Below are positions 19,190 through 58,392 of a DNA stretch of 64,000 nucleotides, in pieces; the first letter of the stretch is position 1; each line of letters opens with the position of its first letter. Source of the DNA: Corynebacterium coyleae (GTDB taxonomy: Bacteria > Actinomycetota > Actinomycetes > Mycobacteriales > Mycobacteriaceae); contig NZ_CP047198.1 of assembly GCF_030408635.1 (NCBI RefSeq), forward strand, positions 1,116,001 to 1,180,000, written 5' to 3'. Both the position numbers and the translations under genes were made by a program. The notes beneath the pieces are model-generated. The model saw only the letters and a list, made by a program, of their open reading frames with translations, did no database searches and was not told where the DNA came from.

Positions 19190-21454
<2,265 letters not shown>

Positions 21455-21458
<4 letters not shown>

Positions 21459-22468
21459 CGGGTTTCCTCCATCAGGTCGATGCCGAGCGCGTCTACCCAG
21501 GCTTCGGTGTCGCCCGCGACGAACGCGGCGCGACTGTGGTCGGCGCGTTCCGGGTCCCAGACCAGCATGGTGCGGAAACCGCCGGTGCCGCCGTTGTGGA
21601 ACGTGATTTCTTCACCGCCTCCGTCGAGGCTTGCCCAGCCATAGTCGGGCACACCGTGCGAGGACACCCATTCCACGTATTTGGCCATGTCGGCAGCAGT
21701 GGAGCGGATCGCGCCAGCCGGGGCCCAGCCGTCCATGTCCCACGGGCCGGCGGGGTGCCCGTTGGCGGCCAGGCCTGTCGGTGCTTCGTCGACGGTGCCA
21801 GGTAGCGCCACGTAGGTCGACGTCATGCCAGCGGGCTCGAAGATTCGGGTGCACAGCAGTTCGTCGTAGGGCACGCCGGCGTGTATGGCCAGCAGCTGGC
21901 CGAGCAGCGCGTGGCCGTAGTTTGAGTATTGTTCCTCGCCGCGGTTGTTCAGCTCGGCGGAACCGGCGGCGTCGAGTATGTCCTGCGGTGTGTCGCGCCG
22001 GTAGGGATTGCCGCCGTCGCGGATGTTCGCCACGAACATGTCCGCGAGGCTCAGACTTTCGGTGGGGGCGAGCCCGGAGGTGTGGTTGAGCAGCTCCTCG
22101 ATGGTCACATCGGCGACGGGGGCGGAGGGGACGTCGATAAGCTCCTGCACCTGAGTATCCAGGCTGAGCTCGCCGGCGTCGATGAACTGGCGGACAAGCT
22201 CCGCGTTGAATGTTTTGGTGATCGAGCCGATTTCGAAGTCATTGTGCTCGTCGGCGCCGAGGCCGCCGAAGCGGACTTCGCCGTCGTCGTAGGTGAAGGC
22301 GGCGAGGTTGCGGTGGCCGTCTTCCGCGAGGTGTTCGAGGGCGGAGGAGATCTCGGCATCGCCAGTGTGCTCAGAGGCCACGGAAATGTCGCGGGGGCCG
22401 GTGGAGAGCATCAACGCGGCGGCGATGGCGGCGGCGATTACGCCGGCAGCAATGTTGGTAGCGCGCAT
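21455..22468 (-). CDS. Serine hydrolase of the beta-lactamase/D-Ala-D-Ala peptidase family, membrane-anchored or secreted
   Basis: The 337-residue protein starts with a hydrophobic signal/anchor (residues 5-24). It has all three class C motifs: SxxK as SITK (Ser82, Lys85), YxN as YSN (Tyr181) and a KTG-equivalent HNGG near the C-terminus. The HxG form is usual for esterase/peptidase relatives such as EstB and PBP4*-type proteins. Its start overlaps the regulator stop by 1 nt, and the membrane protein follows with a 4-bp overlap. It probably acts on peptidoglycan peptides or esters outside the membrane. Confidence 0.85.
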
Positions 22469-22932
22469 CAGTGGTCCTCTCCGGCGATCACGATCGCCAT
22501 GAGCGGGATAACGCGGGCCGGGGGAATCTCGAACATCCCGCCCTGCTTGCGCACCCAGCCGGCGGCCTGCAGTTCCTTCAGGTGGTGGTACGCGGTGCCG
22601 GTGGAGGAAACCAGCTCAGATTCGACCAGCTCCGTCACGCTCGCCGGTGCAGCTAAAAGGTGGCGCAAGATGGCGCCGCGGACGGGGTGCGCGAGCGCGG
22701 CGATGCGGTCCATTGCGTCGTCCCACGGTTGGTCCGTGATCCACGCTGTTGGGCGGATCCATTCGTAGGAGTAGGTGCCGGTCGGCAGTGTGATGTCGCC
22801 GGCGAAGGACACTCTGCCTTGCTCTGTTTCTTTGCTGGAACCGGGGAGTGGGGAGGGCTCGGGTGGTGATGCGTGTTCGAGCGCGGCGACGCGTGCTTCG
22901 AGGTCAGAGAGGCGTGCTTCAATCGGTTGCAT
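22468..22932 (-). CDS. ArsR-like winged-helix transcriptional regulator
   Basis: The 154-residue protein has an N-terminal coiled-coil segment (IEARLSDLEARVAALEHA), a linker, and a winged helix at about 75-145 (ALAHPVRGAILRHLLAAPASVTELVE ... AYHHLKELQAAGWV). No metal-binding cysteines are visible, so the signal is probably not a metal. The start codon lies inside a perfect 44-bp palindrome, and TAATTC (22941-22946, minus strand) sits 8 nt before it, also inside. The simplest reading is autoregulation of the regulator-hydrolase-membrane-protein operon. Confidence 0.82.
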   Translation of the reverse strand: MQPIEARLSDLEARVAALEHASPPEPSPLPGSSKETEQGRVSFAGDITLPTGTYSYEWIRPTAWITDQPWDDAMDRIAALAHPVRGAILRHLLAAPASVTELVESELVSSTGTAYHHLKELQAAGWVRKQGGMFEIPPARVIPLMAIVIAGEDH

Positions 22933-22969
22933 GCTTTCTAGAATTACAGAATTCTAGAAAGCATGCAAC
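22926..22969. promoter_or_regulatory. Perfect 44-bp palindrome covering promoter and start codon of the HTH gene
   Basis: The left arm GTTGCATGCTTTCTAGAATT (22926-22945) and its exact reverse complement (22950-22969) are separated by ACAG. Each arm also contains smaller palindromes (GCATGC, TTCTAGAA). The minus-strand -10 candidate and the ATG of the regulator lie within it. No T-run follows on either strand, so it looks like an operator and not a terminator. Confidence 0.8.
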
Positions 22970-22983
22970 GGCTGAGGTCTGCG

Positions 22984-23649
22984 CTAGCGCAGGATCGCGC
23001 CGATGATGTAGCCCAAATCGCCGACCTCGCGCACCTCGGAGGCCAAGAAATCGGGACCGCCCACACGGCCGACGACGAGCACGAGGTCGGTGCCGTGCAG
23101 GGGTGCCACGGTCAGGGCGGTGTCCAACTGGAACCAAGACTCTGGCACCCATTCGTCGAAATCGGGCTGCAAGATGCGCGCGCCCTCGATTGCGGGCATC
23201 TGCGGGGTGGAACCGTCATCCTCGGGCGCGGCGGAGGAGGCAGCGACGCGCTCCAAACCGGCGTCGGTGTTGCTCAGCACCACCGCCCAGGAGGAGGTGA
23301 CGGCCTTCGGCATGACGTTGACCAACTCTTCGAGCGTGTCGGCCTGTTTGCCCGAATGTGCCGCGATCTGGGCGAGCATTTGGATCTGTCCGCGGCGGTC
23401 GACGCGCCCGGTGAAGGGGCGGATCGAGTCCACTTCGGCGCCGTCGACGGATGCGACGGCGGTGATCAGGGTGTCCACCATGACTCCGGTGGGCAGGGTG
23501 ACCACGATGTCGTCGGTCACGGTGCCGTCGAGTGAGGACTCGACGATGTCCACGGAGTTGATGTCGGCCTCCACGATGCCGAACGCCTCAGCGAGCTGGC
23601 CGAGGCTGCCCGGCACATCGGGGAGTGAAACGCGGATGAGGTACGACAT
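22984..23649 (-). CDS. ACT-domain amino-acid-binding protein
   Basis: The 221-residue protein starts with an ACT domain (YLIRVSLPDVPGSLGQLAEAFG, about residues 1-75), followed by about 145 residues with a second alpha/beta part of unclear family. I start it at 23649: minus-strand TATAAA (23657-23662) lies 7 nt before this ATG, and the longer frame to 23790 runs into gatC. This gene stands between ligA and gatC in related corynebacteria. Ligand and function are unknown; an amino-acid-responsive regulator is the usual guess. Confidence 0.8.
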   Translation of the reverse strand: MSYLIRVSLPDVPGSLGQLAEAFGIVEADINSVDIVESSLDGTVTDDIVVTLPTGVMVDTLITAVASVDGAEVDSIRPFTGRVDRRGQIQMLAQIAAHSGKQADTLEELVNVMPKAVTSSWAVVLSNTDAGLERVAASSAAPEDDGSTPQMPAIEGARILQPDFDEWVPESWFQLDTALTVAPLHGTDLVLVVGRVGGPDFLASEVREVGDLGYIIGAILR

Positions 23650-23750
23650 GGCCTTATTTATAGCAACTGGGGGAGAAGAAGCGGTGGCGCGACGTGACGT
23701 AAGATAAGGCGCGTTAATCGCAACCCACGTTATGCCGAAGGGATGGGACT

Positions 23751-24050
23751 GTGGCTGAGATTTCACGCGACGAGGTGTCGCGCATCGCACGCCTGGCGCG
23801 AATTGCGCTGAAAGACGAGGAGCTGGACACGATTGCCCAGCAGCTGGACACGATTGTGGAAGCAGTGTCGAAGGTGCAAAGCGTGGACACCGAGGGCGTG
23901 ACCCCGATGAGCCACCCGCACTCCATCGACGCCGGTATGCGCGCCGATGTGGAAAAGAAGGTGCTGACGCAGGAGCAGGCGCTGGATCAGGCGCCGGCTG
24001 TGGAGGACGACCGCTTTATGGTGCCGCAGATTCTCGGAGAGGGAGACTAA
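23751..24050 (+). CDS. gatC: Asp/Glu-tRNA amidotransferase subunit C
   Basis: The 99-residue small subunit stabilises GatA and links it to GatB. It has the family pattern ISRDEVSRIARLARIALKDEEL near the start and PMSHPHS in the middle. The start is GTG at 23751, with a GAAGGGATGG site upstream. gatA follows after 3 bp. It shares a divergent promoter region of about 100 bp with the ACT-domain gene. Confidence 0.95.
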   Translation: MAEISRDEVSRIARLARIALKDEELDTIAQQLDTIVEAVSKVQSVDTEGVTPMSHPHSIDAGMRADVEKKVLTQEQALDQAPAVEDDRFMVPQILGEGD

Positions 24051-55592: not shown

Positions 55593-55599
55593 CAAGAAG

Positions 55600-55635
55600 A
55601 AAACCTCCGATCTGGTTCGCCAGGTCGGAGGTTTT
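55600..55635 (+). terminator. Terminator of tRNA-Glu copy 1
   Basis: AAAACCTCCGA (55600-55610) pairs with TCGGAGGTTTT (55625-55635), an 11-bp stem ending in Ts. Confidence 0.85.
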
Positions 55636-55670
55636 CGCGTTCGAGTCTTCCCGGCAGGTACCTTGTGTCT

Positions 55671-58329: not shown

Positions 58330-58336
58330 CAAGGAG

Positions 58337-58371
58337 AAAACCTCCGATCCGGATTCCGGGTCGGAGGTTTT
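58337..58371 (+). terminator. Terminator of tRNA-Glu copy 2
   Basis: AAAACCTCCGA (58337-58347) pairs with TCGGAGGTTTT (58361-58371). The stem is the same as in copy 1; the loop differs. Confidence 0.85.
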
Positions 58372-58392
58372 CGCATTGGTAGCGTAGGTTCA

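What the first reader, a model, noticed from the sequence alone, without database searches (positions are those of the whole stretch)
22926..22969. Perfect 44-bp palindrome that swallows the promoter and start codon of an HTH regulator operon
Seen: 20-bp arms match without error around a 4-nt ACAG spacer, and each arm holds smaller palindromes (GCATGC, TTCTAGAA). The -10 candidate, predicted leaderless start and ATG of the ArsR-like regulator all lie inside. The operon downstream is a regulator, a class-C-type serine hydrolase and a 3-TM protein, joined by 1- and 4-bp overlaps. Inference: an autoregulated envelope-stress or cell-wall-antibiotic response cassette, where bound regulator also blocks translation start. 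I know of no description of this trio.
Basis: partly seen in the sequence, partly recalled or inferred. Interest (0 to 1): 0.7.

Follow-up and report, generated by a model that had tools for sequence, protein, structure and literature searches.

The report
Self-controlling switch for cell-wall hydrolase operon
The perfect DNA palindrome is probably the built-in on/off switch of a small bacterial operon: the regulator gene's own start site lies inside the regulator's likely binding site, and the same switch, made of repeated 8-letter units, recurs in related bacteria in front of genes for enzymes that may act on the cell envelope.

Summary
In detail: a 20+4+20 perfect inverted repeat at 22926-22969 holds a predicted promoter and the regulator's ATG. 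It is most likely the operon's promoter-operator. The same kind of site sits 0-4 nt before the regulator's start codon in 75 of 111 Corynebacterium loci fetched. A matrix made from them gives 183 hits of at least 18 bits in 1.19 million positions, all at operon starts, in 79 of 111 loci. In five loci not used for training a hydrolase gene comes first and the site lies before it; four other hydrolase-first loci show none. Regulators with a TTGQ recognition helix mostly carry another site (TTACGTAA type, 10 of 14). Not found in print in my searches: in both classes the site is a tandem array of 8-bp units (TTCTAGAA|TTCTGTAA|TTCTAGAA here). The outer 7 bp per arm look like overlap of the -35 box TTGCAT with codons ATGCAA. 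The regulator is an ArsR-fold protein with an extra N-terminal helix and hairpin. Neighbours are mostly hydrolases: PF00144 plus a small membrane protein in most corynebacterial loci, elsewhere class-A-type, M23 or aspartyl-protease proteins. Autorepression of transcription is well supported by comparison; a translation block is not; the signal is unknown.

The parts
22926..22969 (.). perfect inverted repeat, 20+4+20
22936..22959 (-). operator core: three 8-bp units, 22959-22952 TTCTAGAA, 22951-22944 TTCTGTAA, 22943-22936 TTCTAGAA
   Evidence: conserved in 75 of 111 loci; 8-bp period
22963..22968 (-). -35 box TTGCAT, 17 bp before the -10
   Evidence: TTGC at this position in 40 of 75 sites, 0 to 7 at nine other offsets tried
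22940..22948 (-). extended -10: TGT + AATTCT; transcription predicted to start at 22933 or 22932
   Evidence: conserved T12, G13, A16, T20 of the core; no measured start
22930..22932 (-). ATG of the regulator, 3 nt after the core, inside the palindrome
22468..22932 (-). regulator, 154 aa: N-terminal helix, beta-hairpin, ArsR-fold winged helix (HTH_20); no cysteine
22564..22602 (-). recognition helix, residues 111-123 of the regulator
   Evidence: predicted helix, position in the ArsR fold; helix class goes with operator class
21455..22468 (-). PF00144 serine hydrolase, 337 aa, motifs SITK / YSN / HNG; N-terminal hydrophobic segment by reading
21180..21458 (-). small membrane protein, 92 aa, three hydrophobic segments, no Pfam or NCBIfam match
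22984..23649 (-). gene just upstream on the same strand (221 aa, no Pfam match; ACT-like by my own reading), not part of the module
   Evidence: a homologue ends within 300 bp upstream at only 11 of 75 sites

Best explanation
The palindrome is the autoregulated, leaderless promoter of the operon. The regulator, an ArsR-fold dimer (or larger assembly through its N-terminal helix), binds a 24-bp array of three 8-bp units, TTCTAGAA-TTCTGTAA-TTCTAGAA, that covers most of the spacer between the -35 and -10 boxes, the -10 itself and the stretch up to the transcript start. Bound regulator shuts RNA polymerase out, so regulator, hydrolase and membrane protein are repressed together until an unknown, probably envelope-related, signal releases it. 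Shown by comparison: conserved site, promoter geometry, specificity to this operon, position before the first gene in rearranged operons, link with the recognition helix, 8-bp period. Inferred: binding itself, repression rather than activation, oligomeric state, signal, and the action of the hydrolase on the cell wall.
Against: No binding, transcript-start or expression data. The 75 sites were chosen by the matrix they built. 4 of 11 hydrolase-first loci (L123, L125, L144, L145) have no hit, and in L065 and L113 the site lies some 60-70 nt before the hydrolase ORF instead of abutting it, in L113 scoring best in reverse orientation. After correction for relatedness by 37 disjoint sister pairs only the 3 bp beside the core keep symmetry more than chance (8 of 22 double changes, null 3.1, fraction 0.0055); the core does not (5 of 25, null 4.8, 0.535), and core plus flanks is borderline (13 of 47, null 8.0, 0.054). 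32 of 111 loci lack a strong TTCTAGA-type site. 5 of 14 TTGQ loci also pass the TTC-unit test. Partners include aspartyl-protease and transglutaminase-like proteins, so the cell wall is not the only common denominator.
Confidence: 0.87

Rival explanations
1. RNA element: in read-through transcripts from the upstream gene the palindrome folds into a 20-bp hairpin that hides the AUG or ends transcription.
For: The RNA strand folds at -35.6 kcal/mol, z -5.3.
Against: No terminator with a T-run at the site; no Rfam family at its gathering score (two weak miRNA matches only). A homologue of the upstream gene is next to only 11 of 75 sites. The conserved asymmetry (TG, -35, -10) is that of a promoter; a leaderless transcript cannot hold the hairpin. 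Arms are imperfect in most orthologues.
Confidence: 0.05
2. One dimer on one 24-bp dyad with half-sites TTCYAnnnTT; the 8-bp repetition in the corynebacterial sites is a by-product of self-complementary half-sites and of the TG/-10 promoter bases in the middle unit.
For: Strongest conserved bases are the outer TTCYA/TRGAA and the inner TT/AA; the 3 bp next to the core keep symmetry about the central dyad.
Against: The ACGT-type sites show the same 8-bp period with two or three direct units: distances between HCGT motifs are 8 (24 times) and 16 (10 times), every other distance at most twice.
Confidence: 0.3
3. The regulator is an activator or a two-way switch of the operon rather than a repressor.
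For: No expression data exclude it; the C. glutamicum orthologue cg2648 is listed among genes changed on altering mprA (PMC12113857, passages only; table header not seen), cause unclear.
Against: The site covers the spacer, the -10 and the start, where a bound protein normally blocks polymerase (established knowledge, recalled).
Confidence: 0.08

Closest known systems
ArsR/SmtB-type repressors (CzrA, SmtB, CadC, NolR)
   Same: Winged-helix fold, aligned over about residues 61-154; an autoregulated operon with the site over the promoter is typical of the group (recalled).
   Different: N-terminal helix and beta-hairpin in front of the fold; no cysteine; below the NCBIfam cut-off for metalloregulators (31.4 against 55); 8-bp tandem units.
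C. glutamicum cg2648 ('putative transcriptional regulator, ArsR-family')
   Same: Orthologue: a published deletion primer for cg2648 holds the operator sequence found in L118. Operon: regulator - PF00144 hydrolase - RDD membrane protein.
   Different: Function unassigned. It was deleted in a screen of oxygen-linked regulators; [quoted passage not shown]
MetJ met boxes and tandem TrpR sites (recalled; library searches gave nothing)
   Same: Tandem operators with 8-bp spacing of self-complementary units.
   Different: Other protein folds (ribbon-helix-helix, TrpR helix bundle); this one is a winged helix.
Class C beta-lactamases and R61-type DD-peptidases
   Same: PF00144 domain, SxxK and YxN motifs.
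   Different: HNG instead of KTG (KTG as the class C motif, and HTG in R61, are recalled); far below the class C cut-off (57.8 against 415).
BlaI/BlaR1 and AmpR control of beta-lactamase genes (recalled)
   Same: A regulator gene beside a beta-lactamase-fold gene.
   Different: Different regulator family; no sensor like BlaR1 among the three genes.

Membership tests
ArsR/SmtB winged-helix superfamily | ArsR-type winged-helix fold | tested here: met
ArsR/SmtB metalloregulators | score above the curated family cut-off (NF033788) | tested here: not met
   31.4 bits against 55
ArsR/SmtB metalloregulators | cysteine metal or thiol site | tested here: not met
   No cysteine in the 154 residues (translation)
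ArsR/SmtB metalloregulators | metal site without cysteine (Asp/His on the last helix) | not tested
   Only looked at by eye; no call made for it
Class C beta-lactamase | PF00144 domain with SxxK and YxN | tested here: met
   127.8 bits against 27; SITK and YSN
Class C beta-lactamase | curated class C score and KTG motif | tested here: not met
   57.8 against 415; HNG at the third motif
BlaI/MecI repressors | Penicillinase repressor Pfam domain | tested here: not met
   Only HTH_20, HVO_A0261_N and DUF7347 listed at E up to 0.001
Intrinsic terminator | stem followed by a T-run | tested here: not met
   The single terminator-like site in 22700-23900 lies at 23070-23055, not here
Leaderless promoter | transcript start at the A of ATG | not testable with these tools
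   Spacing of -10 to ATG predicts it; no RNA data
MetJ-type tandem operators | 8-bp tandem units | tested here: met
MetJ-type tandem operators | ribbon-helix-helix protein | tested here: not met
   winged-helix model

The most novel reading that the evidence does not exclude
A family of ArsR-fold repressors has a common design, seen here in Actinomycetota and in Meiothermus: the protein assembles through its N-terminal helix on tandem 8-bp self-complementary units, as MetJ does on met boxes, and each member governs one neighbouring operon for an exported hydrolase of the cell envelope. In part of Corynebacterium a fourth unit is formed by the start codon and second codon (TTATGGAA), so that the operator constrains the protein's first residues.
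Probability: 0.4. Interest if true: 0.65.

Novelty: new variant of a known kind. Interest (0 to 1): 0.52.

Why it matters
It gives an unnamed regulator family a defined likely binding site, two operator classes matched to two kinds of recognition helix, and a recurring set of partner genes, so specificity and signal can be tested directly in the non-pathogenic C. glutamicum (cg2648). If the 8-bp array is confirmed, it adds an operator architecture that, as far as I recall, is not usual for ArsR-fold proteins. Corynebacteria make mycolic-acid envelopes, and how their serine hydrolases are controlled is, to my knowledge, little studied.

Tried and rejected
RNA hairpin or terminator: see rivals. 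Promoter scan with the E. coli consensus: nothing; the promoter was seen only by comparison. Further targets in the own genome: none with up to 3 mismatches. The one extra site in another genome (G094) lies inside an ORF that I read as cytochrome oxidase subunit II, so probably chance. Inner palindromes as such: the inner bases 6-8 of each arm vary, the repetition by 8 does not.

Literature: searches for the regulator type, trio or operator listed no paper whose title or abstract start describes it; of those I saw the listings only. The search for cg2648 listed 20 papers; I opened passages of three corynebacterial ones (PMC6027265, PMC12113857, PMC4046766), most of the rest being human methylation studies by title. 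One search (guessed neighbouring tags) found 120 papers and showed 12, none on Corynebacterium; (guessed tags) found 2, and NCgl2328 proved to be clpP. MetJ searches gave nothing, so MetJ and TrpR are recalled. Foldseek against PDB could not be run; only the VIA second look was collected; it tests about residues 61-154 and says nothing on the N-terminal part.

Rows dropped and choices made: of 116 match rows, 111 were fetched; left out were G068 (in-frame stop), two G137 pieces, G118 and the weak second G207 match. Distinct windows only were counted (71; 70 and 18; 73; 73 and 23). 'Operon start' means 330 bp before to 20 bp after the regulator match, or, for 11 loci listed by hand as hydrolase-first, 130 bp before to 60 bp after the first ORF. 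Starts of the distant ACGT-type loci were set by hand, and helix classes and unit thresholds were hand-chosen; its 22 'other' helices had TTC-type units in 9 and ACGT-type in 3. The period nulls are single-base shuffles; in the 18 ACGT-type windows period 4 is also raised (13.6 against 11.5), and among 400 control ORF starts period 6 reaches 16 or more in 42.

Full report
What is there. On the minus strand of the window lie, in order, a 221-aa gene ending at 22984, the palindrome 22969-22926, a 154-aa regulator starting at 22932, a PF00144 serine hydrolase and a 92-aa membrane protein. Closest named relatives of the regulator are Corynebacterium species (87% identity at best). The perfect 20+4+20 repeat is confirmed and is the only 100% pair listed in the window; about 4e-6 are expected by chance.

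Conserved promoter-operator. The regulator has a relative in 112 of 242 genus genomes. I fetched 111 of the 116 match rows. A 24-bp matrix refined from strong sites finds a site 0-4 nt before the regulator start codon in 75 of 111 loci; the consensus is TTCYAnnnTT-NTGN-AAnnnTRGAA. The gap to the start codon is 2 nt in 46 and 3 nt in 25 of 75; the start is ATG in 72 of 75. TTGC sits 17 bp before the AATTCT-like -10 in 40 of 75, against 0 to 7 at nine other offsets. Position T20 of the core would be -7, so transcription should start on or next to the A of ATG: leaderless by prediction. In the window this gives -35 TTGCAT 22968-22963, TGT-AATTCT 22948-22940, ATG 22932.

Specificity. Scanning both strands of all 111 loci with the matrix gave 183 hits of 18 bits or more in 1,191,540 positions, all at operon starts, in 79 loci. 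The matrix was trained on 75 of these loci, but five others (L065, L113, L117, L141, L146) have hits although the regulator is not the first gene: there the site lies at or before the hydrolase that comes first. In L141 and L146 it abuts the ORF with a 2-nt gap; in L065 and L113 it lies some 60-70 nt upstream, in L113 scoring best on the other strand. L052 and L064 also have the strong site before the hydrolase, and weaker sites before the regulator. Of 11 hydrolase-first loci 7 have a hit; L123, L125, L144 and L145 do not. In the own genome there is one place with up to 3 mismatches. A looser pattern in 151 genus genomes gave 41 rows in 37 genomes; by coordinates I place 39 at the regulator locus (three of them the second strand of a counted site), one before the first-placed hydrolase of G143, and one inside a coding region of G094. 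The reversed control pattern gave one match.

Why the palindrome is so long. Compared across 71 distinct sites, symmetric pairs exceed shuffles at core 4/21 and 6/19 and at the three positions beside the core, not at the outer positions -4 to -12. With 37 disjoint sister pairs, which lessens the effect of relatedness, the excess remains for the three flanking positions (8 compensatory of 22 double changes, null 3.1, fraction 0.0055), not for the core (5 of 25, null 4.8, 0.535) nor the outer part (5 of 43, null 5.8, 0.69); core plus flanks is borderline (13 of 47, null 8.0, 0.054). So the outer 7 bp per arm in the window are best read as a meeting of two fixed sequences: the -35 TTGCAT and the codons ATGCAA (Met-Gln), which are reverse complements.

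An 8-bp array. Matrix side hits shifted by exactly 8 bp led to a period test. Over 70 distinct upstream windows the best three-unit score is 17.0 at period 8 (shuffle null 10.1, sd 1.8) and at most 12.6 at any other period from 4 to 16. Mean match to TTCYRGAA is 6.3, 6.7 and 7.0 of 8 at offsets 0, 8 and 16, and 2.34 on average at offsets out of the 8-bp register. 53 of 73 sites score 16 or more at period 8, against 19 of 400 control ORF starts. In the 44 sites with a 2-nt gap, a fourth unit made of the start codon and codon 2 scores 5.8; codon 2 is GAA in 24 of 44 there, and in 8 of 25 with a 3-nt gap; relatedness is not corrected for.

A second operator class. Regulators with a GTTGQ recognition helix, in some corynebacteria, in other actinobacteria and in Meiothermus, mostly have TTACGTAA-type units. 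Over 18 windows of this and similar loci the period-8 score is 15.5 (null 10.3); in 23 windows HCGT motifs lie 8 bp apart 24 times and 16 bp apart 10 times, every other distance at most twice, with an 8-bp pair in 18 of 23 loci. Helix and operator class go together: TGTA-type helices have two or more TTC units in 82 of 89 and ACGT units in 0 of 89; TTGQ helices have ACGT units in 10 of 14, with 5 of 14 also passing the looser TTC test; 22 helices are of other types, with 9 and 3. This is the best sequence evidence that the neighbouring regulator itself reads the site.

Other partners. L141, L144, L145 and L146 have a class-A-type hydrolase before the regulator (PF13354 confirmed for L146), as has Meiothermus after it (PF13354 in L036). 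L138, L147 and L165 have M23 peptidases, L040 and L041 aspartyl-protease domains, L039 a transglutaminase domain, L167 and L168 PF00144. Three loci (L071, L108, L132) show no such partner in what I saw. In a phylum sample 10 of 296 genomes, the own one included, had a relative at E 1e-12, with at most 12 candidates scored per genome; in the family of G348, 7 of 101, two of them already known, at E 1e-20, five of the seven with an M23-like motif in the fetched stretch. The common feature is a hydrolase, mostly of exported or membrane-bound kind, most often of a cell-wall type; that is guilt by association.

What is known. The C. glutamicum orthologue is cg2648: a deletion primer printed in PMC6027265 contains the operator of L118. 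[quoted passage not shown] passages read). PMC12113857 lists cg2648 among genes changed on altering mprA (passages read, table header not seen). PMC4046766 lists a small RNA on the opposite strand between cg2647 and cg2648 (passage read). The searches named under Tried and rejected found no account of the operator, the trio or the array.

Verdict.

Noticed in passing
window 55599-55636 and 58330-58378: Two near-identical inverted repeats (AAACCTCCGA..CGG / CCGG..TCGGAGGTTT) lie at the borders of a pair of related genes that I read as mycolyltransferases; possible terminators or duplication borders.
   Followed up: partly
L056 and L063 (G096:C1:431847 and 437230): One genome carries two copies of the regulator operon, convergent, about 5 kb apart with ligA between, each with its own operator (TTCTA- and TTCCA-type).
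   Followed up: partly
L140 1315-3790: Regulator, an M23-like gene and a PF00144-like hydrolase follow one another on one strand, joining two partner types in one locus.
   Followed up: partly
L036-L038 (Meiothermus): The same regulator type with TTACGTAA-type units before its start is followed by a class-A-type hydrolase (PF13354 tested for L036 only).
   Followed up: partly
L164, L165, L174-L178: In genomes that I take to be Streptomyces or near it, the regulator with TTACGTAATTACGTAA-type sites is followed by an M23-like gene; in L164 and L165 it lies downstream of a gene I read as purL.
   Followed up: partly
L118 (C. glutamicum), upstream of the regulator: A published small RNA, cgb_26475, is listed on the opposite strand between cg2647 and cg2648 (PMC4046766); whether it touches the operator was not worked out.
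   Followed up: no
window 22984-23649: The 221-aa protein upstream has no Pfam or NCBIfam match although it reads like a two-ACT-domain protein; it is near gatC in several relatives.
   Followed up: no
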